A model generated the notes under the pieces. It was given only the letters and a program-made list of their open reading frames with translations, searched no databases and was not told where the DNA came from. A DNA stretch of 64,000 nt from the NCBI RefSeq assembly GCF_011170125.1, contig NZ_BLLN01000002.1, forward strand, positions 591,501 to 655,500, given 5' to 3'. The stretch comes from Streptomyces diastaticus subsp. diastaticus. GTDB taxonomy: Bacteria > Actinomycetota > Actinomycetes > Streptomycetales > Streptomycetaceae. The translations under genes and the position numbers were made by a program. This document shows, in pieces, positions 3,368-58,560 of this stretch (its first letter is position 1; each line of letters begins with the position of its first letter).

Positions 3368-3381
3368 GTTTCACGTGAAAC
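3368..3381. other. parS: parS (ParB-binding site), perfect
   Basis: Perfect 14-bp palindrome GTTTCACGTGAAAC in the gap between pepP and the anti-sigma-like gene, 77 bp from the next copy. It matches the Streptomyces parS consensus bound by ParB for origin segregation. Confidence 0.93.
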
Positions 3382-3444
3382 ATCCGACCAGGTCACGTCA
3401 CAGGTGAAACACCACGTCGCTGCGGCAATGAGAGTCCTGTCGAT

Positions 3445-3458
3445 GTTTCACGTGAAAC
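3445..3458. other. parS: parS, perfect
   Basis: Second perfect GTTTCACGTGAAAC in the same intergenic gap (3270-3530), flanked by A/T on both sides as in the 16-bp form. Confidence 0.93.
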
Positions 3459-3530
3459 ACCGCACTGCCCCCCCCTTCAGCGGGCCGACGGTCTGACGGC
3501 ACGGTCGGAGGACTCCGTCAGACGGCGCGC

Positions 3531-3980
3531 TCAGACGGCTACCAGCGGTGCGTCCTTGCGCCACTTGAGGATCTTGTCGAAGGACACGACGGCTCCGGCG
3601 CGGCCCGGCTTGTTGCCGAAGTGGGCGTGGTCGGAGAGCTGCTCGATGAGGTCGAGCCCGCGACCGCTCTCGTCCTGCGGAGCGGTCAGGGGCACGCTGC
3701 GGACGGGCCGGGCGGGGAATCCGGGGCCGGAGTCGGCCACCTCGATCCGACATCGCTCACCGTCCAGGTAGGCGGTGACCCGGTAGGCACTCTCCGGTTC
3801 GGGCGACCCCGCTCCTCCGTGTTCCACCGCGTTCGCGCACGCCTCACTCAGGGCGACGGACAGGTCGTAGGAGATGTCGGGATCGACACCCGCGGTCTCC
3901 ATCGACCCGATGAGCAGGCGACGGGCGAGCGGCACACTCGCGGCATCGCGCCGCAAATGGAGTGACCACATGATGCTCAT
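3531..3980 (-). CDS. ATP-binding anti-sigma-factor-like protein (HATPase_c_2)
   Basis: A 149-residue RsbW/SpoIIAB-like GHKL ATPase. The N box EACANAVEHG (about 47-56), the G1 box ADSGPGF (about 82-88) and ESGRGLDLIEQL (about 104-115) are all present. Such proteins phosphorylate anti-anti-sigma partners or bind sigma factors; in Streptomyces many stand alone. An AGGAGG site seven bases upstream supports the ATG at 3980; longer upstream readings of this frame have no start signal. The target is unknown, but the nearby PP2C-like protein is an obvious candidate counter-player. Confidence 0.9.
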   Translation of the reverse strand: MSIMWSLHLRRDAASVPLARRLLIGSMETAGVDPDISYDLSVALSEACANAVEHGGAGSPEPESAYRVTAYLDGERCRIEVADSGPGFPARPVRSVPLTAPQDESGRGLDLIEQLSDHAHFGNKPGRAGAVVSFDKILKWRKDAPLVAV

Positions 3981-4203
3981 GCTCCAGCCTCCTGACTGCG
4001 GCTCGACATACCGATACGTCTTGCCCCGCCGCCCACGACGTAAGCCCTTCGGCTCCCGCGCCCGCCTCGGCCCGCCGCGCGCCGCCGCCCCGCGGGGGAC
4101 ACATGCGCATACGCCCGCCCCGCCGGGCCGAGAAGCTGAGGTACCCGGACTTTGCGGACCTGCCGTACCGCTGAGGGGGTGCCGGTGCGATGATGAGCCG
4201 GTC

Positions 4204-4974
4204 ATGGCTGCCCCCCACGCGTACGCGCGAGCCGGAGCGGGTCTCCGGCTCCTGAGGGCCGCGGTGTTCACCGCGGTCTGCGTCGTGGTGTCCGCGGCCG
4301 GGCACGTCTTCGCCTCCTGCCTCGCCCTGCCGGGCTGGTCGCTGGCGGCGGCCTTCCTCGGGATCTTCCTGGTGACAGCGGCGCTCGCCGGGCGGGAACG
4401 CTCCTTGCCGGGGATCGTCCTGGCGCTGGCCGCCGGGCAGATCGGCCTGCACGCCCTGTTCGGGATGGCGCAGCAGGGCGCCGCCAAGGCCGCCTCGGAG
4501 GCGAGCCTGGTGGCCCGCGCCGGGGAACTGACCTGCGGGCACAGCGGGGCCATCTCCCCCCACCAGGCGAAGCAGATCCTCGCCGCGGCGGGGCTCGACC
4601 CGCACAGCCCCGCCATGCACCAGCACTCGGGGCTCGCCGGGCTGCTGCCGTCCCTGCCGATGCTCCTCGGCCACCTGCTGGCCGCGCTCGTCGCGGGCTG
4701 GCTGCTGCGCCGGGGGGACCTCGCGCTCTTCCGGCTGGTGCGGCTCTCCGCACTCGGCCGCGAGGAACTGCGCGCCCACGGGGCACCGGTGCGCGCGCTG
4801 CGGACCGCCCTGCGGCTGGTTCGCGCCCTGCGCGCCGGCCTCGCCGCGGACCGCACGCCGTGGACCCGGCATCTCGTCCCGCCGGAGCCGCCCAGGCTCC
4901 GGACGGCCGAACTTGAGCACTCGGTGAGCAGGCGGGGTCCCCCCGCCGCCGAGGTGTACGTACTCGCAGTCTGA
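4204..4974 (+). CDS. Membrane protein with a His/Met/Cys-bearing loop, head of copper cluster
   Basis: A 256-residue protein I cannot assign to a named family. Hydrophobic helices lie near residues 14-40, 46-64, 70-90 and 140-165. Between the third and fourth is a stretch (about 107-145) with one Cys, six His and one Met, including TCGHSG, SPHQ and MHQHSG, a composition typical of copper-binding loops. The C-terminal third is Arg-rich and probably cytoplasmic. It is followed on the same strand by ycnI, sco, PCuAC and copCD, so a role in copper handling is inferred. The ATG at 4204 was chosen because upstream in-frame sequence lacks a better start; its ribosome site is weak. Confidence 0.75.
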   Translation: MAAPHAYARAGAGLRLLRAAVFTAVCVVVSAAGHVFASCLALPGWSLAAAFLGIFLVTAALAGRERSLPGIVLALAAGQIGLHALFGMAQQGAAKAASEASLVARAGELTCGHSGAISPHQAKQILAAAGLDPHSPAMHQHSGLAGLLPSLPMLLGHLLAALVAGWLLRRGDLALFRLVRLSALGREELRAHGAPVRALRTALRLVRALRAGLAADRTPWTRHLVPPEPPRLRTAELEHSVSRRGPPAAEVYVLAV

Positions 4975-5115
4975 CGCGGCACTCCGCAACGCCCGCGCGC
5001 ACGCCCGACGGTGTGCCCGGACGGGACGGGAGGGGTGCCGCGAGGTCCGCGCGCGCCCGCGCGCCGGACACGTACCGCCTCAACCGTTCACCACTGCCGA
5101 AAGTGGAGTCCTCTC

Positions 5116-5898: not shown

Positions 5899-5902
5899 AC
5901 CC

Positions 5903-5955
5903 TGCGGTGTGCACCGGGATCATGACCGTGGAACGGTCACCCGGTGCACACCGCA
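5903..5955 (+). terminator. Long two-part hairpin between ycnI and sco
   Basis: Perfect 16-bp arms at 5903-5918 and 5940-5955 (TGCGGTGTGCACCGGG and its complement) enclose an inner 7-bp stem (TGACCGT 5923-5929 / ACGGTCA 5933-5939) with a 3-nt loop and a 4-nt bulge. It ends 21 nt before the sco start, so it could terminate or attenuate transcription between ycnI and sco, or protect an mRNA end. Confidence 0.7.
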
Positions 5956-5976
5956 CCCGATCCCTGGGACATCACC

Positions 5977-7154: not shown

Positions 7155-7168
7155 GGAGCTGACCGCTG

Positions 7169-9313: not shown

Positions 9314-9319
9314 ACCACC

Positions 9320-10564
9320 ATGGCGGACACCCCCCTCCAGCGTCCGGTGACCCGGCGGCGCCTCCTCGGCACCGCCGGGGCGACCGGCCTCGCCCTCGGT
9401 GTGACCGGCGCCGCCGCCGGTTACACGGCGGCCGCACCCTCCGACAGCGTCACACCACTGACCGAGGTGGGTTCGCGGCGCGAGATGTTTCACGTGAAAC
9501 ATCAGCCCGGCATCACCACACCACTGCATGCCCGTGGCCACCTGATCGCCTTCGACCTGGCTCCCGGCGCCGGACGCAAGGAGGCGGCGTCCCTGCTGCG
9601 GCGCTGGTCGCAGACGGCGGACCGGCTGATGGCGGGGAAGCCCGCCCCGGCCGGCGGCCATGACACCGGGATCGCGCTGGACGCGGGGCCGTCCGCGCTG
9701 ACGGTGACCTTCGGGTTCGGGCACAGCTTCTTCGCCCGTACGGGGCTGGAGAAGCAGCGGCCGGCCGCGCTCGACCCGCTGCCGGAGTTCTCCTCGGACC
9801 GGCTCGACGCCCGTCGCGGCAACGGCGACCTGTGGGTGCAGATCGGCGCGGACGACGCCCTCGTCGCCTTCCACGCACTGCGCGCCGTGCAGAAGGACGC
9901 CGGGCAGGCGGCGAAGGTCCGGTGGCAGATGGACGGGTTCAACCGCTCCCCCGGCGCCACCGAGCAGCCGATGACCACCCGCAACCTGATGGGCCAGATC
10001 GACGGCACCAACAACCCCGCCCCTTCGGACGAGGACTTCGCGGCCCGGGTCCGGGTCCCCGACGGCGGCGACCCCGCCTGGATGGCGGGTGGCTCGTACG
10101 TCGTCTTCCGGCGCATCCGGATGCTCCTCGACGACTGGGAGCAGCTCTCGGTCGCCGACCAGGAGGCCGTGATGGGGCGGCGGAAGTCCGACGGCGCGCC
10201 GCTCACCGGCGGCACCGAGACCACCGAGCCGGAGCTGGAGCGCGTCGGCAAGGACGGAGAACTGGTCATCCCCCTCAACGCGCACGCCCGCATCACCCGC
10301 CCCGACCAGAACGGCGGGGCCGCCATGCTGCGGCGGCCCTTCTCGTACCACGACGGCATCGACGACGAGGGCGTACCCGATGCCGGGCTGCTCTTCCTGT
10401 GCTGGCAGGCCGACCCGCACCGCGGCTTCGTCCCCGTCCAGCGCAAGCTCGACCGGGGAGACGCGCTCTCGGCCTTCATCCGGCACGAGGCGAGCGGCCT
10501 GTACGCCGTCCCGGGCGGCGCGCCGAAGGGCGGGTACGTGGGGCAGGAACTGCTGGAGGGGTGA
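9320..10564 (+). CDS. dtpA: Tat-exported DyP-type heme peroxidase (DtpA-like)
   Basis: A 414-residue DyP/EfeB-family peroxidase. A twin-arginine signal (TRRRLLGTAG, residues 11-20) indicates export folded with heme. The catalytic GxxDG motif lies in GQIDGTNNP (near 224) and the probable proximal His in LNAHARITRP (near 321). In S. lividans the orthologue lies in the same sco/ECuC neighbourhood and is needed for maturation of the copper radical oxidase GlxA, which fits this context. A perfect parS site is encoded in frame as MFHVKH (residues 56-61) between signal and mature domain. It begins six bases after copCD ends. Confidence 0.93.
   Translation: MADTPLQRPVTRRRLLGTAGATGLALGVTGAAAGYTAAAPSDSVTPLTEVGSRREMFHVKHQPGITTPLHARGHLIAFDLAPGAGRKEAASLLRRWSQTADRLMAGKPAPAGGHDTGIALDAGPSALTVTFGFGHSFFARTGLEKQRPAALDPLPEFSSDRLDARRGNGDLWVQIGADDALVAFHALRAVQKDAGQAAKVRWQMDGFNRSPGATEQPMTTRNLMGQIDGTNNPAPSDEDFAARVRVPDGGDPAWMAGGSYVVFRRIRMLLDDWEQLSVADQEAVMGRRKSDGAPLTGGTETTEPELERVGKDGELVIPLNAHARITRPDQNGGAAMLRRPFSYHDGIDDEGVPDAGLLFLCWQADPHRGFVPVQRKLDRGDALSAFIRHEASGLYAVPGGAPKGGYVGQELLEG
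9487..9500. other. parS: parS inside dtpA, perfect
   Basis: GTTTCACGTGAAAC lies inside the coding sequence, read as Met-Phe-His-Val-Lys-His, in the non-conserved stretch after the Tat signal. Confidence 0.92.
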
Positions 10565-10668
10565 CAGCGGGTTCCGGCCACCTTCGAGCCCCCGTGCGGG
10601 GAGGACGCCCCGTCCGGTGGGTGGTCACCGGCCCGGTCGGCGGTCGCCGGGAGACTAGGGTTTCCGAC

Positions 10669-27020: not shown

Positions 27021-30000
27021 TCACGCCGCCACCTCCGACCGTCCCAGCAGCAGAGCGTCCGTGGATCGCTCCCGCTCCCGTAGCCGGCGGAACGGCCCGT
27101 CCTCCGTGCTCAGCTCCTCGTACGTGCCGCGCTGCACGATCCGGCCCGCCTCCAGCACGAGGATCTCGTCGACCGCTTCCAGCCCGGTGAGCCGGTGGGT
27201 GATGAGGAGGGTGGTACGCCCCCGGGTCGCGGCCAGCAGGTCGGCGGTGAGGCGGTCGCCGGTCTCCAGATCGAGGTGTTCGGTCGGCTCGTCGAGCACC
27301 AGGAGCGGGAAGTCGGCCAGCAGCGCCCGGGCCAGCGCAAGCCGCTGCCGCTGCCCGCCGGAGAGCCGCGCGCCGTGCTCCCCGACCGGGGTGTCCAGCC
27401 CGTCGGGCAGCGTTTCGGCCCACTCCAGCAGCCGGGCCTGCGCCAGCGCCTCGCGGAGCCGCTCCTCGGACGCGGAGCGGTCGGCGAGGAGGAGGTTCTC
27501 CCGCAGGGTGCTGTCGAAGACGTGGGCGTCCTGCGCGCAGAGCCCGACCAGGCGTCGTACGTCGTCCCCGGCCAGCTCCGTCGCTGACGTACCGGCGAGC
27601 GTGTGACTCCCGGCGCGGGCGTCGAGGAAGCGCAGGAGGAGGTGGGCCAGCGTGGTCTTGCCGGAACCGGACGGTCCCACCACGGCGATCCGGCGCCCCT
27701 CGGACACGGTCAGGTCGATCCCGCTCAGCGCATCGCGCGCCTGTCCGGGATACCGGGCGTCCACGCCACGTAGCTCCACCGGGAACGGACTTGCCGGCGC
27801 CGTCCCGGCGGTCTCGGGTTCGTCGACCGGTATGGGGGCGTCCAGCACCTCGTGGACCCGTTCGGCGCTACGGCGCACCCGTTGCCGGAACTGGACGGCG
27901 AGCGGAAGCCCGGTCACCGCCTCGAAGGCGGCGAGCGGCGTCAGCACCACCACGGCCAGCGCCACCCCGTCCAGGGCACCCGCACTCACCCCCCGGACAC
28001 CGACGTACGCCGCGGCCACCGTGGTCAGCCCCGTGACCATCGCCGTCAGACCGGAGCCGAGGGCGTTGGCCGTGGCCCCCCGCGCCCGGATGCGGGTCAG
28101 CTCGCGGTCGGCGTCGCCGGCCCGTGCCGTGCGGTGGGCCAGTGCACCCGCCACCGTCAGCTCACCCGTGCCGGTGAGGACCTCCGTGACCCGGGTGGCC
28201 AGCGCTCCCCTCGCCGGCGCCAGCCGCAGTTCGGCACGCCGGGCGAAGGCACCGCTGACCAACGGCACCCCCACGCCTGCCGCCAGCAGGCCGACGGCGA
28301 GGACAGCCCCGGCGGGCGGCAGCAGCCACGTCACGAAGAGGACGGAGACGACGGAGACGAGCGCGGCCCAGCCGGCCGGCAGGAGCCACCGGAGCCAGTA
28401 GTCCTGGAGCGCGTCCACGTCCGCGACCAGGCGCGAGAGCAGATCGCCCCGCCGTGTGCCCCGCAGACCGGCGGGGGCGAGCCGCTCAAGCCGCCGGAAC
28501 ACCGCGACCCGGGTGTCGGCCAGCATCCGCAGGACCACGTCGTGGGAGACGAGACGTTCCGCGTACCGGAAGACCGCCCGCCCGATACCGAAGGCCCGCG
28601 TCGCCGTCACAGCCATCATCAGGTAGAGCACCGGGGGCTGTTGGGAGGCCCGGGAGATCAGATAACCCGAGGTGGCCATGAGGCCCACCGCGCTGCCGAG
28701 CGCCAGGCTGCCCAGCAGGAGGGAGAGCAGCAGGTGACCGCGCCGGGTGCGTCCTGCGGCCCGCACTCGGGCCAGGGCGGAGCCGCCTCGGAGCGGCCCG
28801 GAGGCCGGAGCGGGGCCCTCCTCCGGTGTTTCACGTGAAACAGCGCGCACAGGCTCCGGGGGCGGTGTCGCGGATGTTTCACGTGAAACATCCGCGAAGA
28901 ACCACTCCCACTCCTCAGGCGAGGTTTCACGTGGAACATCCGCACGCGCGCCGCCGGGCAACGGGCCGTCCGCGCCGGATCGGGCCCGGGGCCCGTCCGC
29001 CACCGTCATGGAGCCGGCCGCCGACACGAGGGAACCACCTGCTGAGGAGTTTTCGCGCTGCGTCGGGACGCTACGCTCACGCTTCCCCGCCGAGACCTTC
29101 GTCACCTCGTCCATCCGCACCACCCGGTCGGCGACAGCGAGGAGGGCGGGCCGGTGCACCACCAGCAGCACCGTCCGGCCCACGGCGAGCCGCCGGACCG
29201 CCTCGACGACGGCTTCCTCGCTCGCGCCGTCCAGCGCGGCGGTCGGCTCGTCCAGCAACAGGATCGGCCGGTCCGCGAGGAACGCCCGGGCCAGTGCGAT
29301 GCGTTGGCGCTGGCCGGCGGAGAGTCCCGCGCCCTCCTCACCCAGCTCCGTCTCCATGCCCAGGGGAAGGCCCGCCACGAAGTGCTCCGCCCCCGCCTGC
29401 TCGAGCGCCCGGGCGACGTCCGCGTCACAGGCCTCGGGGCGGGCCAGCCGGACGTTCTCCGCGATGGTGCCCGCGAAGAGCTGAGGGCGTTGTGGGACCC
29501 AGGCGATGCGCTGGTGCCACTGCTCCCGGTCGACCTCGGCCAGATCGGTCCCGCCGACGGTGATCCGCCCGCCGACCGGGGCGACGAAGCCCAGGACTGC
29601 CTGGAGCAGCGTCGACTTGCCGCACCCGCTGGGCCCGACGAGGGCCACGGTCTCCCCGGGAGCCACCGAGAAGTCGGCCTCACGGACGGCGGGCGTGCCG
29701 CGCCCGGGGTAGCGGACGGTCACCCGCTCGAAGGCGAGGGCGCCCGTGGGCGCGGCCAGCTCGCCGGTGTGCGGCAGGGGGGTCTCCAGTACGGCGAACA
29801 CCTCTTCCGCGGCGGCCAGGCCTTCCGCCGCCGCGTGGTACTGCGCGCCGACCTGGCGTAGCGGCAGGTACGCCTCGGGGGCCAGAAGCAGGATGACCAG
29901 CCCGGTGTACAGATCCATGTCGCCGTGGACGAGCCGCATGCCGATGGTGACGGCCACCAGTGCCACCGAGAGCGTGGCCAGCAGTTCCAGCGCGAAGGAG

Positions 30001-30731
30001 GAGAGGAAGGCGATGCGCAGGGTGCGCAGGGTCGCCCGCCGATAGTCGTGGGTGATGCGGCGGATCGACTCGGCCTGCGCCTTGGCGCGTCCGAAGATCT
30101 TGAGGGTGGGCAGCCCGGCGACCACGTCCAGGAAGTGACCGGAGAGCCGCGACAGCAGGCCCCACTGCCGGTCCATCCGGGACTGGGTCGCCCAGCCGAT
30201 GAGCGCCATGAAGACCGGTATCAGCGGCAGGGTGACGACGATGATGGCGGCGGAGACCCAGTCCTCGGTGACGACCCGGGCGAGCACCGCGACCGGCACG
30301 ACGACGGCCAGCCCCAACTGCGGCAGGTATCGGGCGAAGTAGTCGTCGAGCGCGTCCACGCCGCGGGTGGCCAGGGCGACGAGAGACCCGGTCCGCTGGC
30401 CCGAGAGCCAACCAGGACCGAGCCGCCCGGCCCGTTCCACCAGCCGCATCCGCAGTTCGGAGGTGACGGCGGCGCTGGCACGGTGGGCGGCGAGTTCGGT
30501 CAGCCAGGAGATGAGGGCGCGCCCCAGGGCCACGGCCACCAGCACGAGGAGCGGGGTGGTCAGGTCGCCGGTGTCGTAGCGCTGCTCGAAGGAGGAGACG
30601 ATCAGTTCGGCGAGGAGCATGGCCTGGGCGATGACCAGCCCGGCGCCGACCGCACCGAGCACCACCACGGCGACCAGGAAGAACCTGGTGGCGCGGGCGT
30701 ACCTGAGCAGTCGCGGGTCGACAGGTTTCAC
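27021..30731 (-). CDS. cydDC: Fused CydD-CydC thiol-reductant ABC exporter
   Basis: About 1236 residues joining two ABC half-transporters that export cysteine/glutathione-like thiols and are needed to assemble cytochrome bd. The CydD half (about 1-560) has six helices and Walker A VGPSGCGKST, signature LSAGQRQR and ILLLDEPTAALD. The CydC half (about 665-1236) has VGPSGSGKTT, LSGGQRQR and LVLDEPTEHLD. The linker (about 565-665) is low complexity and contains three in-frame parS-type sites read as V-(S/P)-R-E-T. GGAGG lies nine bases before the GTG at 30731, which itself lies in a parS site; a GTG at 30740 is too close to the GGAGG. It is third in the cydABDC operon. Confidence 0.95.
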   Translation of the reverse strand: MKPVDPRLLRYARATRFFLVAVVVLGAVGAGLVIAQAMLLAELIVSSFEQRYDTGDLTTPLLVLVAVALGRALISWLTELAAHRASAAVTSELRMRLVERAGRLGPGWLSGQRTGSLVALATRGVDALDDYFARYLPQLGLAVVVPVAVLARVVTEDWVSAAIIVVTLPLIPVFMALIGWATQSRMDRQWGLLSRLSGHFLDVVAGLPTLKIFGRAKAQAESIRRITHDYRRATLRTLRIAFLSSFALELLATLSVALVAVTIGMRLVHGDMDLYTGLVILLLAPEAYLPLRQVGAQYHAAAEGLAAAEEVFAVLETPLPHTGELAAPTGALAFERVTVRYPGRGTPAVREADFSVAPGETVALVGPSGCGKSTLLQAVLGFVAPVGGRITVGGTDLAEVDREQWHQRIAWVPQRPQLFAGTIAENVRLARPEACDADVARALEQAGAEHFVAGLPLGMETELGEEGAGLSAGQRQRIALARAFLADRPILLLDEPTAALDGASEEAVVEAVRRLAVGRTVLLVVHRPALLAVADRVVRMDEVTKVSAGKRERSVPTQRENSSAGGSLVSAAGSMTVADGPRARSGADGPLPGGARADVPRETSPEEWEWFFADVSRETSATPPPEPVRAVSRETPEEGPAPASGPLRGGSALARVRAAGRTRRGHLLLSLLLGSLALGSAVGLMATSGYLISRASQQPPVLYLMMAVTATRAFGIGRAVFRYAERLVSHDVVLRMLADTRVAVFRRLERLAPAGLRGTRRGDLLSRLVADVDALQDYWLRWLLPAGWAALVSVVSVLFVTWLLPPAGAVLAVGLLAAGVGVPLVSGAFARRAELRLAPARGALATRVTEVLTGTGELTVAGALAHRTARAGDADRELTRIRARGATANALGSGLTAMVTGLTTVAAAYVGVRGVSAGALDGVALAVVVLTPLAAFEAVTGLPLAVQFRQRVRRSAERVHEVLDAPIPVDEPETAGTAPASPFPVELRGVDARYPGQARDALSGIDLTVSEGRRIAVVGPSGSGKTTLAHLLLRFLDARAGSHTLAGTSATELAGDDVRRLVGLCAQDAHVFDSTLRENLLLADRSASEERLREALAQARLLEWAETLPDGLDTPVGEHGARLSGGQRQRLALARALLADFPLLVLDEPTEHLDLETGDRLTADLLAATRGRTTLLITHRLTGLEAVDEILVLEAGRIVQRGTYEELSTEDGPFRRLRERERSTDALLLGRSEVAA
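28828..28841. other. parS: parS inside cydDC linker, perfect
   Basis: GTTTCACGTGAAAC, encoded in frame (minus strand) as Val-Ser-Arg-Glu-Thr; first of three at 48-bp steps. Confidence 0.92.
28876..28889. other. parS: parS inside cydDC linker, perfect
   Basis: Perfect copy exactly 48 bp from the previous one, same reading frame (DVSRETS). Confidence 0.92.
28924..28937. other. parS-like site inside cydDC linker, one mismatch
   Basis: GTTTCACGTGGAAC, one base from consensus, 48 bp beyond the middle copy and in the same frame (DVPRETS). Confidence 0.75.
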
Positions 30732-30738
30732 GTGAAAC
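30725..30738. other. parS: parS overlapping the cydDC start codon, perfect
   Basis: GTTTCACGTGAAAC covers the proposed GTG start of cydDC (30731) and lies right after its ribosome site. Confidence 0.92.
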
Positions 30739-30819
30739 ACCCTCCGGGGGCGGCCGGACGGCAGGCGCGCCGTCCGGTGCGGGAGCCGGAGCCGCAAGCC
30801 GCGGCCCCCGCATGAGCGG

Positions 30820-31821
30820 TCAGTGGGCCTCGGCGAGGTGATGCGTGCCGATGCGCTTACGGAAGACCCAGTACGTCCACCCCTGGTAGAGGAGGACCAC
30901 CGGCGTCGCGATCCCCGCACACCAGGTCATGATCTTCAGCGTGTACGGACTGGAGGCGGAGTTGGCAGCGGTGAGGCTCCACTCCGGATCCAGGGTGGAC
31001 GGCATCACGTCGGGGAAGAGCGAGACGAAGAGCATCGCCACGCTGGCCACGATGGTCAGCCCCGAGAGGGCGAAAGCCCACCCCTCCCTGCCCTTGGCGA
31101 CCGCACCGAGGGCGGCGAGCAGTGCGAGCACCGCGACCCCCAGCAGGACGGCCCCGGCGGTCTTGCCGTGGTCGGCCTGGGTCCACAAGAGGAAGCCCAG
31201 GGCCGCCACCGCGGTGACCGCCCCGAGCCGCAGCGCCAGCCCGCGCGCCCGCTCCCGTATCTCCCCGACCGTTTTGAGTCCGGCGAAGACCGTGCCGTGG
31301 AAGGTGAAGAGGGTGAGCGTGACGACTCCGCCGAGCAGCGCGTACGGATTGAGCAGGTCGAGGACACCGCCGACGTACTCCTTGTCGGCGTCGATCGCCA
31401 CGCCGCCCACGATGTTGCCGAAGGCGACGCCCCAGAGGAAGGCGGGGAGCAGGGAACACCAGAAGATGGCGTGCTCCCAGTTGGTCTGCCACCGCTCCCC
31501 GCTCCGCTTGACGCGGTACTCGAAGGCCACGCCCCGGATGATGAGACAGATGAGGATGAGCAGCAGCGGCAGGTAGAAGCCGGAGAAGAGCGTGGCGTAC
31601 CACTCGGGGAAGGCGGCGAAGGTCGCGCCGCCGGCGCTGAGCAGCCACACCTCGTTGCCGTCCCAGACGGGCCCGATGGTGTTGATGAGGACGCGCTTCT
31701 CCCGCCGGTCGCGGGCCAGCAGCTTGGTGAGGACGCCGACCCCGAAGTCGAAGCCTTCCAGGAAGAAGTAGCCGGTCCACAGGACAGCGATCAGGACGAA
31801 CCAGACGTCGTGGAGTTCCAT
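30820..31821 (-). CDS. cydB: Cytochrome bd ubiquinol/menaquinol oxidase subunit II
   Basis: A 333-residue membrane protein with about eight to nine helices. The start (MELHDVWFVLIAVLWTGYFFLEGFDFGVG) is the conserved CydB N-terminus, and NTIGPVWDGNEVWLL is a family signature. With CydA it forms the high-affinity bd oxidase used at low oxygen. It begins 14 nt after cydA. Confidence 0.97.
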   Translation of the reverse strand: MELHDVWFVLIAVLWTGYFFLEGFDFGVGVLTKLLARDRREKRVLINTIGPVWDGNEVWLLSAGGATFAAFPEWYATLFSGFYLPLLLILICLIIRGVAFEYRVKRSGERWQTNWEHAIFWCSLLPAFLWGVAFGNIVGGVAIDADKEYVGGVLDLLNPYALLGGVVTLTLFTFHGTVFAGLKTVGEIRERARGLALRLGAVTAVAALGFLLWTQADHGKTAGAVLLGVAVLALLAALGAVAKGREGWAFALSGLTIVASVAMLFVSLFPDVMPSTLDPEWSLTAANSASSPYTLKIMTWCAGIATPVVLLYQGWTYWVFRKRIGTHHLAEAH

Positions 31822-37378: not shown

Positions 37379-37782
37379 GCCGGGCGGACGGACCGGCCCT
37401 GCCGACCCCGGGCCGTGGACGGCACGGCCGGCGTGGGCGGTCGGTGCCCCGGCACGGCGCACCACGGCCGCTCCGGCGCGGGACTGCCCGACCGCGCTCA
37501 CGACCACCACCGAGCAGTCCTTCCCCGGCCGACGGCCGCTGTCCCGCCCCGGCGTACCGTGCCGGAAAGTGGCGCCCGCCCCGCCCGGACCGGCCGGGGC
37601 CGTACGGGCCGGTGAGCATACGGGAAGGTGCCGCCCGGCCTCCCTTTTCCGCGAAGTCACTGTCACATCGGGCCGTTACCGCTCTACCATCGACATATCC
37701 GTAGCAGGCTCTCCTCCGTTCCCACCGACCCGCCCGCGACGTCGCGGGCGGCGATGCCCTACGGACACCTCGGGGGATGCAC
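37379..37782. other. 404-nt gene-free stretch
   Basis: GC-rich sequence between the metallophosphoesterase and the next gene. Short open frames here lack Streptomyces third-position bias, and no site or hairpin was recognised with confidence. Confidence 0.5.
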
Positions 37783-38691: not shown

Positions 38692-38739
38692 ACGGTGGCC
38701 GACCGGGCGCTTCCGGCGCTCCGGCCGACCACTCGCCGC

Positions 38740-38753
38740 GTTTCACGTGAAAC
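38740..38753. other. parS: parS, perfect (triplet copy 1)
   Basis: First of three perfect sites at exact 29-bp steps between the hypothetical gene and thiC. Confidence 0.93.
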
Positions 38754-38768
38754 AGGACCACGAAGGGC

Positions 38769-38782
38769 GTTTCACGTGAAAC
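38769..38782. other. parS: parS, perfect (triplet copy 2)
   Basis: Perfect GTTTCACGTGAAAC, 29 bp from both neighbours. Confidence 0.93.
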
Positions 38783-38797
38783 ATCGACGGTAGGGGT

Positions 38798-38811
38798 GTT
38801 TCACGTGAAAC
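38798..38811. other. parS: parS, perfect (triplet copy 3)
   Basis: Perfect copy with an extended near-palindrome (GGGGT..., ...CGCCCC flanks), 20 bp from the thiC stop. Confidence 0.93.
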
Positions 38812-38830
38812 GCCCCCACCGCTGCGGCAC

Positions 38831-40768
<1,938 letters not shown>

Positions 40769-46362: not shown

Positions 46363-46427
46363 GCTGTCCTGCGACGCCCGGCCGTGCGTCGCGGAGCGAC
46401 GCCGGCCGCGGTGAGCCGCGCGCGTGG

Positions 46428-46466
46428 GAACGGCCCGAGCCTCCCCCCTCGTGGCTCGGGCCGTTC
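46428..46466 (+). terminator. Terminator after the PLP lyase
   Basis: Perfect 13-bp arms GAACGGCCCGAGC (46428-46440) and its complement (46454-46466), 13-nt loop. Confidence 0.8.
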
Positions 46467-46605
46467 TGGGCTCCGTACAGAAGAGCCACCTCATCAAGGC
46501 TAGTTGACCCTGCGTCAGTGTCCAATCACTGTGGCGGCAGCGACCTATCGACATATTTATAGTTGCACCGCGAGTGACGGCCTGCGACGCGAAGGGGTTG
46601 AGTGC

Positions 46606-47521: not shown

Positions 47522-47535
47522 GTTTCACGTGGAAC
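47522..47535. other. parS-like site, one mismatch
   Basis: GTTTCACGTGGAAC in the 45-nt gap between the LysR and NUDIX genes. Confidence 0.7.
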
Positions 47536-48121: not shown

Positions 48122-48135
48122 GTTTCACGTGAAAC
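48122..48135. other. parS: parS, perfect
   Basis: GTTTCACGTGAAAC in the gap between the NUDIX and GNAT genes. Confidence 0.93.
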
Positions 48136-49431: not shown

Positions 49432-49890
49432 ATGACCGCCACGGACCCCGCACTGACCGCGCTGGCACAGAGCTGGTGCGCCCTGTCGCTGCTGCACGGC
49501 CGTATCGAGGCACACCTGGAGCGGGCCCTCCAGTCCGGGCACGGCCTCAGCACGCGCGAGTACTCACTGCTGGACGTACTCAGCCGACAGCACGACGGCG
49601 AGGGCGGCCATCTGCAGATGAAGCAGGTCGCCGACGCCGTCGTCCTCAGCCAGAGCGCCACCACGCGACTGGTGACCCGGCTGGAGGACCGCGGCCTGCT
49701 CTCCCGCTACCTCTGCCCCACCGACCGGCGCGGCATCTACACCGACGTGACCCCGTCGGGGGCCACTCTCCTCGAAGAAGCCCGCCCCACCAACGACGCG
49801 GCCCTGCGGGAAGCCCTCGACGCCGCCGCCCAGAATCCCGAACTCGCCCCACTCGTCCAGGCCGTGGAGACCCTGCGCGTCCCCGCCTGA
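49432..49890 (+). CDS. MarR-family transcriptional regulator
   Basis: 152 residues with a winged helix: YSLLDVLSRQ, MKQVADAVVLSQSATTRLVTRLE and the wing CPTDRRGIYTDVTPSG. It begins at the ATG after GGAGG/GAGGAG. The AT-rich upstream sequence (around 49328-49348) may hold an operator. No adjacent efflux gene reveals its ligand. Confidence 0.92.
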   Translation: MTATDPALTALAQSWCALSLLHGRIEAHLERALQSGHGLSTREYSLLDVLSRQHDGEGGHLQMKQVADAVVLSQSATTRLVTRLEDRGLLSRYLCPTDRRGIYTDVTPSGATLLEEARPTNDAALREALDAAAQNPELAPLVQAVETLRVPA

Positions 49891-49940
49891 CGTCATCACC
49901 GCGCCCGGAGCGCCCAGGGCGCTGCTCTACTGTGCGGCTC

Positions 49941-50504
49941 ATGGATCACTTCAGCAGCACGCCCCAGCAGGACCACGAGCCCACAACCACAGACGATGCC
50001 GCCGCACCCCGCCCGCGCGGCGACGCGGACGGCCACCGGGAAGCCCGCTCCACCGGGGAACTGCTGATCCGCCCCGCCGAAGTCTCCGACGTGGCGGCCA
50101 TCGTCGCCATGCTCGCGGACGACCCGCTGGGCGCCACCCGGGAGTCCCCGGAGGACCTCACTCCGTATCTGGCGGCCTACTCCCGGCTGGCCTCCGACCC
50201 CCATCAGCGCCTCGTCGTGGCCGAGCGTGCCGGCAAGGTCGTCGGAACGCTTCAGCTGACCCTCGTCCCGGGCCTCTCCCGCCGGGCCGCCACCCGGTCC
50301 CTCATCGAGGGAGTGCGCGTCCACGCGGACGAGCGGGGAAGCGGTCTCGGCAGCCTCCTCATCGAGTGGGCCGTCGAGACCTCCAGCACCGAGGGCTGCC
50401 AGCTCGTCCAGCTCACCTCCGACGCCTCACGCGAGGACGCCCACCGGTTCTACGAGCGCCTCGGTTTCGTCGCCTCCCACGTGGGGTTCAAGCGGCAACT
50501 CTGA
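49941..50504 (+). CDS. GNAT-family N-acetyltransferase
   Basis: 187 residues. The first 45 are a low-complexity Asp/Pro/Arg stretch; the rest is a GNAT domain with GVRVHADERGSGLGSLLIEW (CoA loop) and REDAHRFYERLGF. It follows the MarR gene by 50 nt, possibly co-transcribed. Confidence 0.9.
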   Translation: MDHFSSTPQQDHEPTTTDDAAAPRPRGDADGHREARSTGELLIRPAEVSDVAAIVAMLADDPLGATRESPEDLTPYLAAYSRLASDPHQRLVVAERAGKVVGTLQLTLVPGLSRRAATRSLIEGVRVHADERGSGLGSLLIEWAVETSSTEGCQLVQLTSDASREDAHRFYERLGFVASHVGFKRQL

Positions 50505-50558
50505 GCCGCGCTCTGCCGCTTCGGCCGGGCCGGCGCAACAGGCCCCCCGGTGATGGGT

Positions 50559-50572
50559 GTCTCACGTGAAAC
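50559..50572. other. parS-like site, one mismatch
   Basis: GTCTCACGTGAAAC, 29 bp before the next perfect copy. Confidence 0.72.
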
Positions 50573-50587
50573 CCCGGCTTGAGCCAT

Positions 50588-50601
50588 GTTTCACGTGAAA
50601 C
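50588..50601. other. parS: parS, perfect
   Basis: Middle member of a three-site group between convergent genes. Confidence 0.93.
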
Positions 50602-50625
50602 ATCACACCGCCGGGTGCTGGGGAT

Positions 50626-50639
50626 GTTTCACGTGAAAC
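50626..50639. other. parS: parS, perfect
   Basis: Perfect copy 38 bp after the previous one, 22 bp from the hydrolase stop. Confidence 0.93.
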
Positions 50640-50660
50640 ATCCCCTCAATCAGGCTTCGT

Positions 50661-52061
50661 TCACCCCGACTCGACCTGGCCGTGCCATCCACGGGCATCC
50701 ACGCCGCCAGGAACCACCGAGTCCGGGGCGTAGGGCTCGCGCGTGTACACGAACGCACCCAGATCCAGATGCGTCACGGCACCTTCGACGTCGCGCACGG
50801 GCCGCAGGATCTCCCCGCGGAAGTAACCGTCCAGCCCCCGCCACGTCCCGTCACCGACCGCCTCGAAACGCGAGGCGCGCCCAGTCCCCTTCAGCGGCCG
50901 CAGCTCCACCCCGCCATCGGCACCACAGTGCAGTCCGTACGGCGTCACGCCCCAGTACCAGGCACCGGCCAGCTCCAGTACCGCCGGGTCCACCTCCCGC
51001 ATCGGCCGCCAGAGCCGAGGCATCGCCGGCTCCGCCTCGGCGACGATGCCGAGGAGTTCGGCGGCGAGGGTGCCCACGAGGAGCCCGGAGGTGGTGTTGG
51101 CCAGGACGACGGCGGTCAGCCGCTCGCCCTCATGCGACAGCAGGGCGGCCAGGTACCCGGGCAGGGAACCCATATGGCCGGTGAGCGTGGCCCCGGCGCC
51201 GCTCAACACCTGCAACCCCAGCCCGTAGGCGCTCTCCGGCGTCCCCGGCAGGCTCGGAGCCGCAGGCGTCCGCATCTCCCGTACCGAGGCCGCGCTCAGC
51301 ACCTCCTCGTCGCCATCGAGCAGGAAGGCGGCGAAGCGCAAGAGATCCCGCGTCGTCGACCAGAGCTGCCCGGCGGGGGCCATGCGGCCGAGATCGTGCG
51401 CCGGCTCCGGCAGGAGCGCGTCGGCCCAGGGGTGCACCGCCCAGCCTCGCGCGTACGGCGCCTGCGGCCCGTAGCTGGTCCGGGTCAGCCCCAGCGGCTC
51501 CAGCACCTCGGTGCGCAGCACCTTCTCCCAGGGCTCGCCCCGCATCTCCTCGACGAGTGCGCCGAGCAGGGTGTAGCCGGGGTTGGAGTAGTGGTGAATC
51601 CGGCCTACCGGGTGCCGGTGCGGCTCCTCGCCGAGTACGTCGGACAACTCCGGCCGCAGAGTGCCGGGACTCCGTTCCCACCATTCACCGGGCGCCTCAG
51701 CGGCGAGCCCGGCCGTGTGGGACAGCAGGTCGGCGATGGTCGCCTGGCCCGCGCCCGTGCCGGGCAGATGCTTCTCCAGGGGATCGGTCAGCTCCAGAAG
51801 CCCCTCGTCACGAAGCCGCATGACAAGAACGGCCGTGAAGGTCTTACTGATGGAGCCGACCCGGTACTGCGTGCGGCCGTCGGTCTCGACCCCGTCGAGC
51901 GCGGAGAGGGCACCCTCCCAGATCACCTCCCCGTCCCGCGCCACCCCGGCCACGAGCGACGGCACGCGGGACTCGTTCTGCGCCTTGGCGATCCGGTGGC
52001 GCAAGGCCCGACGGGTGGTGGGCAGAAGGCCGAGGTCTTCGACTGTCTCATCAGTTGTCAT
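50661..52061 (-). CDS. Beta-lactamase-family serine hydrolase
   Basis: 466 residues. The class C/DD-peptidase fold is shown by the SxxK nucleophile in VGSISKTFTA (about 65-74) and the Tyr motif HYSNPGYTLL (about 158-167); HMGSLPG is the likely third motif. A C-terminal domain (about 365-466) is typical of esterase/D-aminopeptidase relatives. No signal peptide, so it is probably cytoplasmic. ATG 52061. Confidence 0.9.
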   Translation of the reverse strand: MTTDETVEDLGLLPTTRRALRHRIAKAQNESRVPSLVAGVARDGEVIWEGALSALDGVETDGRTQYRVGSISKTFTAVLVMRLRDEGLLELTDPLEKHLPGTGAGQATIADLLSHTAGLAAEAPGEWWERSPGTLRPELSDVLGEEPHRHPVGRIHHYSNPGYTLLGALVEEMRGEPWEKVLRTEVLEPLGLTRTSYGPQAPYARGWAVHPWADALLPEPAHDLGRMAPAGQLWSTTRDLLRFAAFLLDGDEEVLSAASVREMRTPAAPSLPGTPESAYGLGLQVLSGAGATLTGHMGSLPGYLAALLSHEGERLTAVVLANTTSGLLVGTLAAELLGIVAEAEPAMPRLWRPMREVDPAVLELAGAWYWGVTPYGLHCGADGGVELRPLKGTGRASRFEAVGDGTWRGLDGYFRGEILRPVRDVEGAVTHLDLGAFVYTREPYAPDSVVPGGVDARGWHGQVESG

Positions 52062-52309
52062 GGTCTCCACTCCACTCGCTCGGCCAAAGGAGGTCCAGCA
52101 CTTTCCGCGGACAGGTCCAGTCCGCCCCGATCGACCGGCACACGGACTCAGCCGCTGCTGCGCACCTGGACGGCTCTCGCTCCTCGAATCGCTCCCGCTC
52201 CCGCGGGCCGACCGCCACCAGGAGCTGAGCCGCGGGTGGGGAGCGAGGAGTGCACATCCGCCCCCGCCACCTCGGTCTTCCGGCGGATGGGCGTCGGCGT
52301 TGACGCCTG

Positions 52310-53449
52310 TCACCCCTTGAGGCACGCACGGAGCGCCGTGACGAGCCGGTTGGCCCGGTCGTCCCCGTGGCCGATCATGCGGTTGGCCACGTAGGCGAAG
52401 CCGACGCCGAACTCGTCGTCGCCGAAGACGAACTGGCCCCCCGCACCGTCATTGCCGAAGCTGCGGCCACCCAGCATCGGGCGCGGGTGCTCCGAGTCGA
52501 GGAGGAAGCCCGAGCCCCAGCGCTGGCCCAGGTCGAAGCCCTGCCAGGTGGGTCCCGCCGACACCTCGCGCACGGCGTCGGTCACCGTCTCGGTCGAGAG
52601 CAGGCGGGAGCCGCCGTCGATCCCCGTCACGGCGGCGCCGTACAGGGCGGCGAGTCCACTCGCGGAGGCGACCGCTCCCGCGCCGGGCAGTTCCATGCCG
52701 AGCAGTTCGGGGTCGTTCCAGCCGTGGGGCTCGTCGAGTCCGGGGAAGACCAGCGCTCCGTTCATCGTGACGATGCGCATCAGCAGCGACTGAGGATCAC
52801 CGGCGGGACGGCCCTCGGCCTCCACCAGTCGCGCCAACTCCCCCGTCTCGGAGGCGGGCAGGCCGATCCAGGCCCGTACTCCGAGCGGCTCGCCGATCGC
52901 CTCACGGAAGAACCGGCCCGGGGTGAGCCCGGTGACCCGACGGATGATCTCCCCGACCAGGAACCCGAAGACGTGCCCGTGGTACTCGTACGCCTCACCC
53001 GGTTCCCAGAGCGGGACCTGCTCCTCGACGGCGTGGACGACCGGTGCCCACTCGGCGATCTCGGCGAAGCTCGGAGTGCGGTCGAGCACCGGCACTCCGG
53101 CCCGGTGGCCGAGCACCATGCGCGTGGTGATCCGCTCCTTGCCCACGGCGGCGAACTCCGGCCAGTAGGTCGCGACCGGTGCGTCGAGGTCGAGCCGCCC
53201 CTGCTGGGCGAGGAGATGGGCGCAGATGCTGACGAGGCCCTTGGCGCAGGAGAAGACGGGCACGACCGTCTCGCGGGTCCACGGCCGCCCGGACCGTTGG
53301 TCGGCCACGCCGCCCCAGAGTTCCACCACGGGGCGGCCACCCACCCGGACCGACACCGCCGTGCCCAGTTCCCCGAACTCCGTGAAGTTGTCGCGGAAGA
53401 CGTCGGCCACGCCCCCGAAGGTCTCGTCCGCCCAACCGCCGATCTCCAC
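52310..53449 (-). CDS. Beta-lactamase-family serine hydrolase/esterase
   Basis: About 379 residues with SCAKG (SxxK, about 70), Tyr in AYEYHGHVFGFL and a C-terminal FGNDGAGGQFVFGDDE, resembling EstB/LipL-like beta-lactamase-fold esterases. No signal peptide. It is next to another member of the same fold on the same strand but not closely similar to it. A GTG at 53449 has AGGAG eight bases before it; GTG 53458 is too close. Confidence 0.9.
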   Translation of the reverse strand: MEIGGWADETFGGVADVFRDNFTEFGELGTAVSVRVGGRPVVELWGGVADQRSGRPWTRETVVPVFSCAKGLVSICAHLLAQQGRLDLDAPVATYWPEFAAVGKERITTRMVLGHRAGVPVLDRTPSFAEIAEWAPVVHAVEEQVPLWEPGEAYEYHGHVFGFLVGEIIRRVTGLTPGRFFREAIGEPLGVRAWIGLPASETGELARLVEAEGRPAGDPQSLLMRIVTMNGALVFPGLDEPHGWNDPELLGMELPGAGAVASASGLAALYGAAVTGIDGGSRLLSTETVTDAVREVSAGPTWQGFDLGQRWGSGFLLDSEHPRPMLGGRSFGNDGAGGQFVFGDDEFGVGFAYVANRMIGHGDDRANRLVTALRACLKG

Positions 53450-55073: not shown

Positions 55074-55155
55074 GCAACCCGCACGGGACTCGCCGGACCG
55101 CCGGGCCGGCGGGTGCCTCGGGCCCGGAAAGCTCCAGCGGGCACACGTCACGTCT

Positions 55156-56625: not shown

Positions 56626-57095
56626 CGTGCCGCCTCCATCCGTCCGCCGAGCGGACCTCGCCGTGCGCGCTTCCGTACGGCCCGACACTGACAAAGCGAG
56701 AGGCCGAACCCCTCTTCTGACGCGTCGAAGTCGTGAGTTTCCTCGGTCGGTGACTCAGGCCGCGCGCGGGTGGGTCGCCGGACCACGGTAGGCCCGTCGA
56801 CACCGTCAGCCAATCTGGTTATCCACAGGCCCTGTGGATGATCGCCCCAATGCTGTGGAGAACCCGCCGAAACCTGTGCACGCTTCCGTGGACAGCACTG
56901 TGAACAACCCCTCAGGCACCTCGCCACCCTACCGCTGACCTGCAATTTCACCGCCCGCAGGCTGTGCAGGAGAAAAACTTCCCCACCTCGCGCGAGATCG
57001 TCTCCAAACCGTTGCCACTCCACCCGCAACCTGGCGCCAAGTAAGGAGCCTACCGGCATTGCATCCATTACCTGTGGATGATTACATTGGGCGCC
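56626..57095. promoter_or_regulatory. Divergent region dnaB / MATE
   Basis: A 470-nt gap between divergent genes that holds both promoters and the DnaA-box cluster listed separately. Confidence 0.6.
56819..57081. promoter_or_regulatory. DnaA-box cluster upstream of dnaB
   Basis: TTATCCACA at 56819-56827 (perfect). One-mismatch boxes TGTGGATGA (56833-56841), TGTGGAGAA (56854-56862), TGTGAACAA (56899-56907) and TGTGGATGA (57073-57081) also lie here. At least the first four fall within 90 bp, close enough for cooperative binding. Confidence 0.6.
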
Positions 57096-58433
57096 ATGAC
57101 CAAGGCAGCTCCGCAGGCCAAGCCCCATCGCCGTCGGCACGACCGCGAGATCGTCGCCCTTGCCGTCCCCGCCTTCGGAGCCCTCGTCGCCGAGCCCCTC
57201 TTCGTGATGGCGGACAGCGCGATCATCGGCCACCTGGGCACCGCGCAACTCGCCGGGCTCGCCGTGGCCTCCGCCCTGCTGACCACCGCGGTCAGCATCT
57301 TCGTCTTCCTCGCCTACGCCACCACCGGCGCCGTCGCCCGACGCGTCGGCGCGGGAGACCTCTCCGCCGCCATCCGGCAGGGCATGGACGGCATCTGGCT
57401 GGCGCTGCTCCTGGGAGCCGCCGTCATCGCGGTGGTCCTGCCGACCGCCCCGGCCCTCATCGACCTCTTCGGAGCCTCCGAGACCGCCGCACCGTACGCG
57501 GTCACGTACCTGCGCATCTCCTCGCTCGGCATTCCGGCGATGCTCGTCGTGCTGGCCGCCACCGGTGTGCTGCGCGGACTCCAGAACACCCGCACCCCGC
57601 TCTACGTCGCCATCGGCGGCTTCGTCGCCAACGCCGTCCTCAACGTCGTCCTGGTCTACGGCGCCGGGCTGGGCATCGCCGGCTCCGCCTGGGGCACGGT
57701 CATCGCCCAGTGCGGCATGGCCGCCGTCTACCTGGTGGTCGTCGTCCGAGGCGCCCGCAAGCACGGCGCCTCGCTCAAGCCGGACGCGGCGGGCATCCGC
57801 GCCTCCGCGCAGGCGGGCGCCCCGCTGCTGGTGCGTACCTTGTCGCTGCGGGCCGTCCTGATGATCGCGACCGCCGTGGCCGCACGCCTCGGGGACACGG
57901 AGATCGCCGCCCACCAGATCATCCTCTCCCTGTGGAGCCTGCTCGCCTTCGCCATGGACGCCATCGCCATCGCCGGGCAGGCGATCATCGGGCGCTACCT
58001 CGGCGCCGGTGACACCCGAGGGGCCCAGGCCGTCTGCCGTCGCATGGTGGAGTGGGGCATCGGCTCCGGCGTCGCCCTCGGCGTCCTGGTGGTCGTCTCC
58101 CGGCCCCTGTTCATCCCTCTGTTCACCAGCGACTCGGCGGTACATGACGCCGCCCTCCCCGCCCTGCTGGTGGTCGCCTGCTGCCAGCCCCTCTCGGGCA
58201 TCGTCTACGTCCTCGACGGTGTCCTCATGGGAGCGGGCGACGGCCCGTACCTCGCCTGGGCCATGCTGCTCACCCTCGCGATCTTCACGCCGTTCGCCCT
58301 GCTGATTCCCGCCTGGGGCGGCGGCCTCACCGCGGTCTGGGGAGCGATGACGCTGATGATGGCCACCCGGGCGGTCACCCTGGGCCTCCGTACGAGGTCG
58401 GGGCGCTGGCTGGTCACGGGAGCCAGCCGGTGA
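57096..58433 (+). CDS. MATE-family efflux transporter
   Basis: A 445-residue, twelve-helix DinF-like multidrug/toxin exporter (IVALAVPAFGALVAEPLFVMAD, ATGVLRGLQNTRTPLYV). It is expected to use Na+ or H+ to export cations. ATG 57096 is chosen; ATG 57078 would add six residues and neither has a good ribosome site, so the mRNA may be leaderless. Confidence 0.93.
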   Translation: MTKAAPQAKPHRRRHDREIVALAVPAFGALVAEPLFVMADSAIIGHLGTAQLAGLAVASALLTTAVSIFVFLAYATTGAVARRVGAGDLSAAIRQGMDGIWLALLLGAAVIAVVLPTAPALIDLFGASETAAPYAVTYLRISSLGIPAMLVVLAATGVLRGLQNTRTPLYVAIGGFVANAVLNVVLVYGAGLGIAGSAWGTVIAQCGMAAVYLVVVVRGARKHGASLKPDAAGIRASAQAGAPLLVRTLSLRAVLMIATAVAARLGDTEIAAHQIILSLWSLLAFAMDAIAIAGQAIIGRYLGAGDTRGAQAVCRRMVEWGIGSGVALGVLVVVSRPLFIPLFTSDSAVHDAALPALLVVACCQPLSGIVYVLDGVLMGAGDGPYLAWAMLLTLAIFTPFALLIPAWGGGLTAVWGAMTLMMATRAVTLGLRTRSGRWLVTGASR

Positions 58434-58499
58434 CACCGGAGCCGACGGGCCGGGCCCGCGTGACGGGGCAACTGCGCCGGCGCGCTGGCGACAGATGAT

Positions 58500-58513
58500 G
58501 TTTCACGTGAAAC
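58500..58513. other. parS: parS, perfect
   Basis: GTTTCACGTGAAAC between the MATE gene and rplI. Confidence 0.93.
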
Positions 58514-58546
58514 ATCACCGCCGGGGGATGACCGCCCCGAGCACAG

Positions 58547-58560
58547 GTCTCACGTGGAGC
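58547..58560. other. Degenerate parS-like site
   Basis: GTCTCACGTGGAGC, three mismatches, 47 bp from the perfect copy; the core TCACGTG is kept. Weak candidate. Confidence 0.35.

What the first reader, a model, noticed from the sequence alone, without database searches (positions are those of the whole stretch)
3368..58560. Dense field of parS sites marks the origin-proximal domain
Thirteen perfect GTTTCACGTGAAAC palindromes and three one-mismatch copies occur in 64 kb, plus a three-mismatch copy at 58547. Chance expectation for a 14-mer is far below one. In S. coelicolor parS sites cluster around oriC. The number and tight grouping here (about 7 loci) give a complete local map of ParB loading points.
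Basis: partly seen in the sequence, partly recalled or inferred. Interest (0 to 1): 0.7.

Follow-up and report, generated by a model that had tools for sequence, protein, structure and literature searches.

The report
Dense chromosome-segregation site field in Streptomyces
This stretch of a Streptomyces chromosome near the replication origin is crowded with copies of the short DNA landing site of the chromosome-segregation protein ParB; such crowding is already known for this group, but the copies seem to multiply by small tandem duplications and then decay, much as satellite repeats do.

Summary
The window holds 13 of the 45, so it is no complete map. A dense field is a known trait (PMC8743542: 11-65 sites in 20 Streptomyces genomes, 65 in S. 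albidoflavus J1074). This genome, a relative of S. albidoflavus, is high (53; median 22 of 250) but not unique. Added here: compared with S. albidoflavus NRRL B-1271, parS is kept (534/549 columns) while spacers drift (324/467), and three degenerate copies of the window are perfect in the relative, i.e. probably dying parS. Arrays elsewhere keep a constant step with residual spacer homology, which points to tandem duplication as their birth; in the window itself that test is inconclusive. One genome reaches 131 sites. One array is encoded in frame in the linker of fused CydDC.

The parts
3339..3352 (.). decayed parS (GTCTCACGCGGGCC, 5 mismatches); the aligned site is perfect in S. albidoflavus NRRL B-1271
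3368..3381 (.). parS, perfect, between the 3' ends of two convergent frames (1791-3269 + and 3531-4982 -)
3445..3458 (.). parS, perfect, same intergenic stretch
9487..9500 (.). parS, perfect, in frame in a Dyp-type peroxidase frame (9320-10564, +): MFHVKH at residues 56-61, just before the peroxidase domain (from residue 62)
28828..28841 (.). parS, perfect, in frame in the CydD-CydC linker (AVSRETP)
28876..28889 (.). parS, perfect, in frame in the CydD-CydC linker (DVSRETS), 48 bp from either neighbour
28924..28937 (.). parS, one mismatch (DVPRETS); perfect in the relative
27021..30920 (-). fused cydDC frame: CydD match at residues 79-603, CydC match at 718-1244; the parS array codes for residues 662-698 between them
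30725..30738 (.). parS, perfect, at the 5' end of the cydDC frame (RVFHVKP, about residues 61-65) or just upstream of the real start; start not settled
38740..38753 (.). parS, perfect, beyond the 3' end of thiC (38831-40624, -)
38769..38782 (.). parS, perfect, 29-bp step
38798..38811 (.). parS, perfect, 29-bp step; the relative has the same 29/29 array
47522..47535 (.). parS, one mismatch (GTTTCACGTGGAAC), just after the end of a LysR-type frame; same variant in the relative
48122..48135 (.). parS, perfect, intergenic
50559..50572 (.). parS, one mismatch; perfect in the relative
50588..50601 (.). parS, perfect, between the 3' ends of a GNAT-type frame (49476-50504 +) and a serine-hydrolase-like frame (50661-52325 -)
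50626..50639 (.). parS, perfect, same intergenic stretch
58500..58513 (.). parS, perfect, between the 3' ends of a MATE transporter frame (57078-58433 +) and rplI (58682-59128 -)
58547..58560 (.). decayed parS (3 mismatches); perfect in the relative

Best explanation
The window is part of the centromere (parS field) of a Streptomyces chromosome, on the parB side of dnaA. ParB dimers are expected to load at each GTTTCACGTGAAAC, close into CTP-dependent clamps, slide out, and together build one origin-proximal segregation complex that ParA moves and that recruits SMC (function inferred from published work on ParB; not shown here). The field evolves by birth and death: short tandem duplications copy a parS with its spacer, parS copies are kept by selection, spacers drift, and surplus copies die by point mutation (conservation and degenerate copies shown here; duplication and direction of change inferred). 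In this genome the field looks like a slightly eroded version of that of its relative S. albidoflavus NRRL B-1271.
For: Motif, number and origin-proximal position. Orthology: in the fetched stretches G000 and G349 carry 20 arrays each, in the same order; parS columns 534/549 identical, spacers 324/467, 40-bp flanks 1177/1459; three degenerate copies (3339, 3397, 58547) and four of five one-mismatch copies of G000 are perfect in G349. Birth by duplication: equal successive steps in 17 of 52 adjacent pairs in arrays of Streptomyces and close kin (expected 2.8, largest of 5000 permutations 9) and 29 of 102 in other bacteria (expected 6.0, largest 18); in G300 16 of 24 (expected 2.3; 0 of 20000), spacer identity 122/228 against 0.361 in shuffles (0 of 200); locus L132 repeats a 24-bp unit (parS plus ggcccaccgc) exactly; the G000 array at C2:578080 repeats an 87-bp unit with similar spacers. 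Same loci, different arrays: 5 Streptomyces loci at the place of window 30725 and 7 at that of window 58500 have arrays with different steps. Published ParB ChIP-seq at 16-17 parS in S. venezuelae (PMC12511625, passages read).
Against: No binding data for this strain. In the window only two arrays (48/48, 29/29) have equal steps; pooled over G000 the equal-step test is not significant (2 of 6 pairs, expected 0.98; 5122 of 20000 permutations). Over the sampled Streptomyces arrays spacer identity within arrays is only slightly above that between arrays (0.483 against 0.417; 418 of 5000 draws reach it). Spacings also show a helical-type periodicity, so spacing may be selected as well as inherited. 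G000 has one site, in the array at C2:672710, that G349 lacks. The direction of change rests on two genomes without an outgroup, and the alignments were centred by hand on known sites.
Confidence: 0.82

Rival explanations
1. Spacing is set by selection rather than by duplication: neighbouring parS sites are held on a favoured face of the helix so that ParB dimers loaded side by side can interact.
For: Array spacings favour about 23-27, 33-38 and 43-47 bp with few at 28-32: triple-array loci of Streptomyces and close kin R=0.303 at 10.5 bp (1 of 2000 jittered sets), other bacteria R=0.311 (0 of 2000), and R=0.295 (0 of 5000) when each combination of coarse taxon and spacing is counted once. A wider Streptomyces set with G300 and G000 gives R=0.224 (3 of 2000).
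Against: Different arrays of one genome keep different constant steps (33x5, 31x3, 24x4, 22x2 in G300), and orthologous arrays change their steps (48/48 to 45/48, 29/38 to 28/42, 91 to 81). The window's 29-bp steps fall in the void. G300 alone shows no significant periodicity (585 of 2000). The test was chosen after seeing the spacings, orthologous arrays are not independent, and the scan pattern only admits steps of 19-49 bp. It does not explain spacer homology.
Confidence: 0.25
2. The sites are held by something other than ParB, for example as transcription terminators or as coding motifs (VSRET, MFHVK).
For: A few sites lie at the centre of longer palindromes (3 of 45 in G000, 4 of 50 in G349, 3 of 51 in G300, in the fetched stretches, against control rates of 0.4-0.6%); four sites of the window are in frame in named genes; the four multi-copy intergenic arrays of the window lie between 3' ends of convergent frames.
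Against: Most sites have no extended palindrome; no terminator-like site at 3200-3600; clustering around parB and dnaA is not explained.
Confidence: 0.03
3. CRISPR-like array or chance repeat.
For: Palindromic repeats with spacers of constant length and different sequence look superficially like it in G300.
Against: 14-bp repeat, spacers down to 5 bp, one repeat family spread over 683 kb around parB; 18 matches against 0.73 by chance. Cas genes were not searched.
Confidence: 0.01

Closest known systems
Chromosomal ParABS centromere of Streptomyces (S. coelicolor 24 parS, S. venezuelae 16-17, S. albidoflavus J1074 65; from passages of PMC12207404, PMC12511625, PMC8743542)
   Same: same 14-bp palindrome, clustering around the origin, parB inside the field, many sites per genome, more sites on one side (29 of 45 perfect sites on the parB side of dnaA)
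   Different: 53 sites here; the site-by-site birth-and-death reading and the count of 131 in G300 were not in the passages I read
parS clusters of Pseudomonas aeruginosa and Bacillus subtilis
   Same: ParB loading sites near oriC
   Different: far fewer sites (P. aeruginosa: ten putative, from the start of the abstract of PMC4368675; B. subtilis about ten, recalled)
Minisatellites and eukaryotic centromeric satellites (recalled, analogy only)
   Same: tandem units with duplication, divergence and change of copy number
   Different: the unit is a selected 14-bp protein site with a drifting spacer; arrays of 2-7 units at many separate loci

Membership tests
chromosomal parS (ParABS) | matches the GTTTCACGTGAAAC palindrome | tested here: met
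   13 perfect, 3 one-mismatch
chromosomal parS (ParABS) | clustered around oriC rather than spread evenly | tested here: met
   all 53 sites with at most one mismatch on contig C2 within 683 kb around dnaA; genome 7.08 Mb in 9 contigs. oriC itself was not located; dnaA stands for it
chromosomal parS (ParABS) | a cognate chromosomal ParB encoded in the genome | tested here: met
   one ParB_N match (1.8e-35) at C2:676739-677017; full frame
chromosomal parS (ParABS) | ParA encoded next to parB | tested here: inconclusive
   neighbouring frame with a KGGVGKTT stretch, read by eye; no HMM run on it
chromosomal parS (ParABS) | ParB binds the sites in vivo | not testable with these tools
   needs ChIP-seq
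tandem-repeat origin of the arrays | constant step within an array | tested here: inconclusive
   G000: 2 of 6 adjacent pairs equal, not significant; met in G300 (16 of 24) and in the pooled Streptomyces sample (17 of 52)
tandem-repeat origin of the arrays | homologous spacers between units | tested here: inconclusive
   G000 29/65 against 0.276 in shuffles from 3 spacer pairs, the clearest being the C2:578080 array outside the window; G300 122/228 against 0.361; pooled Streptomyces not significant
CRISPR | repeats and spacers of some 20-50 bp (recalled) beside cas genes | tested here: not met
   14-bp repeat, spacers down to 5 bp; cas genes not searched

The most novel reading that the evidence does not exclude
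Streptomyces centromeres behave like satellite DNA: parS copies are born by tandem duplication, kept in tens of copies by selection on total ParB loading, and die by point mutation, so that the field drifts from 7 to 131 sites between species while the loci stay put; a preference for helical phase would add a rule for neighbouring ParB dimers.
Probability: 0.55. Interest if true: 0.6.

Novelty: new member of a known kind. Interest (0 to 1): 0.42.

Why it matters
Why Streptomyces keep tens of parS where most bacteria have a few is open. A natural series of related genomes with 7 to 131 sites, orthologous arrays at fixed loci and visibly degenerate copies makes the question testable: does segregation or hyphal growth depend on the total number of sites, on local array size or on spacing? 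It also warns against counting a three-mismatch copy as a functional site.

Tried and rejected
Spacings of the window's side of the field (19, 29, 38/39, 48, 77) first looked like multiples of about 9.6 bp; that period is not supported in the wider sample (218 of 2000), and orthologous arrays shift their steps. Terminators: only a small minority of sites have long flanking palindromes, and no terminator-like site was found at 3200-3600. The symmetric variant GTTCCACGTGGAAC as the parS of the genomes without canonical sites: no perfect match in any of the 8 genomes searched. The ParB tree used extremes chosen on purpose: 33 genomes searched, 30 loci returned, 28 rows used (G258 and G110 dropped because my motif did not find the frame; G046, G070 and G078 had no locus in that call; row G113 keeps extra N-terminal residues); the order of its main groups is unresolved. 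Literature searches; only the listed rows were looked at (25 of 89, 10 of 42, 5 of 5, 2 of 2, 3 of 3, 10 of 74, 12 of 69, 5 of 5), and none of those titles and abstract starts is about tandem birth of parS. Passages were read in PMC8743542, PMC12511625, PMC8357415 and PMC12207404. Livny 2007 is not held and Jakimowicz 2002 was not sought; the library lacks most subscription journals.
Full report
Check of the observation. ARAGORN found no tRNA; Rfam gave one match, Streptomyces RNA 3920, at 46425-46549, minus strand.

Whole genome. The window is G000:C2:591501-655500 of a 7,083,172-base assembly in 9 contigs. Of 58 places with at most two mismatches 57 are listed; the 45 perfect and 8 one-mismatch places equal the 53 counted and all lie on C2 between 279,998 and 963,138. 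The dnaA match is at C2:684,135 and the one ParB_N match at C2:676,739, minus strand. 39 of the 45 perfect sites are within C2:578-807 kb, and 29 of 45 lie on the parB side of dnaA. PMC8743542 reports 79.86% to the right of oriC in 20 closed genomes (passages read); that parB lies to the right in the usual orientation is recalled. The window holds 13 of the 45.

How unusual. In the 250 same-genus genomes the median is 22 sites with at most one mismatch (quartiles 18 and 25); G000 has 53. One search covered 392 same-genus genomes, of which by handle number 305 are new, so 555 distinct ones in all: 11 of 555 have 53 or more and 5 exceed 65 (67, 70, 76, 82, 131). PMC8743542 gives 11-65 sites, 65 in S. 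albidoflavus J1074, by a matrix method, so its numbers and mine are not strictly comparable. The density is therefore a known trait of this group.

Anatomy. Frames were chosen by codon-position G+C and 20 distinct frames were run against NCBIfam, some also against Pfam. The four multi-copy intergenic arrays lie between the 3' ends of convergent frames: Xaa-Pro-aminopeptidase-like and HATPase-domain frames (3368-3458), an unnamed frame and thiC (38740-38811), GNAT-type and serine-hydrolase-like frames (50559-50639), MATE transporter and rplI (58500-58560). Single intergenic sites lie after a LysR-type frame (47522) and after a weakly Nudix-like frame (48122). Four sites are in frame: 9487 codes for MFHVKH in a Dyp-type peroxidase just before its N-terminal domain, and 28828, 28876 and 28924 code for AVSRETP, DVSRETS and DVPRETS at residues 662-698 of a CydD-CydC fusion, between the CydD (79-603) and CydC (718-1244) matches. 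The site at 30725 lies near residue 61 of that frame, before the CydD match; the true start is not settled.

Birth and death of sites. In the fetched stretches the ori regions of G000 and G349 carry 20 arrays each, in the same order. Aligned pair by pair, with the pairs set by hand, parS columns agree in 534 of 549, spacers in 324 of 467 and 40-bp flanks in 1177 of 1459 positions (centring on known sites favours parS somewhat). G000 copies at window 3339 (5 mismatches), 3397 and 58547 (3 each) and four of its five one-mismatch copies in these arrays are perfect in G349; the fifth (47522) is the same variant in both. One G000 site, in the array at C2:672710, has no counterpart in G349. Decay in the G000 lineage is the natural reading, without an outgroup to prove direction. 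Steps change as well (48/48 to 45/48 in the CydDC array, 29/38 to 28/42, 77 to 75, 91 to 81, 25 to 36).

Same loci in other species. Stretches orthologous to window 30725 (five loci) and 58500 (seven loci), found by BLAST among the triple-array loci, carry arrays with other steps, such as 34/39, 37/36, 37/37 and 21/38, 26/29, 21/36, 42/21, 36/27, 42/22, 25/24/54, where the window has one site, or one site and one decayed copy. These loci were selected for having triple arrays. In L132 a 24-bp unit (parS plus ggcccaccgc) is repeated exactly.

Origin of arrays. Equal neighbouring steps: 17 of 52 against 2.8 expected, and 29 of 102 against 6.0, neither reached in 5000 permutations. Spacers of equal length within an array are clearly alike in other bacteria (0.743 against 0.266 between arrays) but only slightly in Streptomyces (0.483 against 0.417; 418 of 5000 draws). 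In G300 (131 sites; one search lists only the first 50 places, and 13 stretches were fetched) steps are often constant within arrays and differ between arrays: 16 of 24 equal against 2.3, spacer identity 122/228 against 0.361. For G000 alone the step test is not significant (2 of 6), while spacer identity is raised (29/65 against 0.276, three pairs; the clearest is the 48-39-48 array at C2:578080). Tandem duplication followed by spacer drift fits best; for the window itself it is an inference from relatives.

Rival: a spacing rule. Spacings are periodic near 10.5-11 bp in Streptomyces and, in a separate sample, in other bacteria, with few between 28 and 32 bp. The test was chosen after seeing the data, G300 alone does not show it, and the window's 29-bp steps sit in the void. 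It is kept as a lead.

Tree. ParB of 28 genomes chosen for extreme counts: G000 pairs with G349 (53, 65), nine genomes with 37-131 sites group together (support 97/96), a pair has 39 each, and the eleven with 7-9 sites group together with weaker support (93/95). The order of these groups is unresolved and intermediate genomes were hardly sampled, so several expansions, or one early expansion with losses, both remain possible.

Function. ParB loading, CTP-clamp sliding and SMC recruitment are taken from published work (PMC12511625 and PMC12207404, passages read). PMC12207404 suggests that S. coelicolor ParB nucleates independently on two parS and speculates that many parS enlarge the segrosome. 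PMC8357415 (passages) says that several parS probably add robustness and that scattered sites look counterproductive for avoiding SMC collisions. None of this was tested for this strain.

Noticed in passing
L214 (G042), L215 (G046), L216 (G078), L217 (G070); genus g3 of the same family, unnamed: Five genomes of one genus have no canonical parS (at most one mismatch) and a sixth has one, though ParB is present (67-68% identity). G078 (contamination 10) has 11 places matching GTCACACGTGTGAC with at most one mismatch, 10 of them on the parB contig. With a pattern built from what I had seen, G037 has 16 places, 9 of them TGCTTCACGTGAAGCA; G042, G046, G054, G062 and G070 have 3-4 mixed half-site palindromes each, 17 of 18 on the parB contig; seven others of the genus mostly keep TGTTTCACGTGAAACA. 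It looks like a shift of parS specificity with mixed intermediates inside one genus.
   Followed up: partly
ParB of the same g3 genomes (L193, L196, L218-L229): Six variant-parS genomes (G046 not extracted) differ from seven canonical ones at many fixed ParB positions, several in and after the helix-turn-helix (for example Q to H in GRSRPQV). Whether these cause the shift is unknown; much of it may be plain relatedness.
   Followed up: partly
G300 (inferred Streptomyces sp. NRRL F-4489), L034-L046: 131 parS sites with at most one mismatch, twice the published maximum I found, in arrays of up to seven copies with steps of 22-52 bp in the fetched stretches.
   Followed up: partly
window 28828-28937: A three-copy parS array is translated as the interdomain linker of a CydDC fusion. 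Its steps are 48/48 here and 45/48 in the relative, all multiples of three; the relative's frame was not translated.
   Followed up: partly
window 3269-3531, 38691-38831, 50504-50661, 58433-58682: All four multi-copy intergenic arrays of the window lie between the 3' ends of convergent frames (one of the eight frames, 37777-38691, has no family match). Not tested outside the window.
   Followed up: no
parS arrays across bacteria (L047-L166): Neighbouring parS in triple arrays are rarely 28-32 bp apart (3 of 104 taxon-spacing combinations outside Streptomyces) and show a periodicity near 10.5 bp.
   Followed up: partly
L160 6388-6572 and window 3271-3353: In S. albidoflavus NRRL B-1271 one parS is the centre of a longer palindrome (gaggggcgtt-parS-aacgcccctc); in the window the arms are kept but the parS in the middle has decayed.
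   Followed up: no
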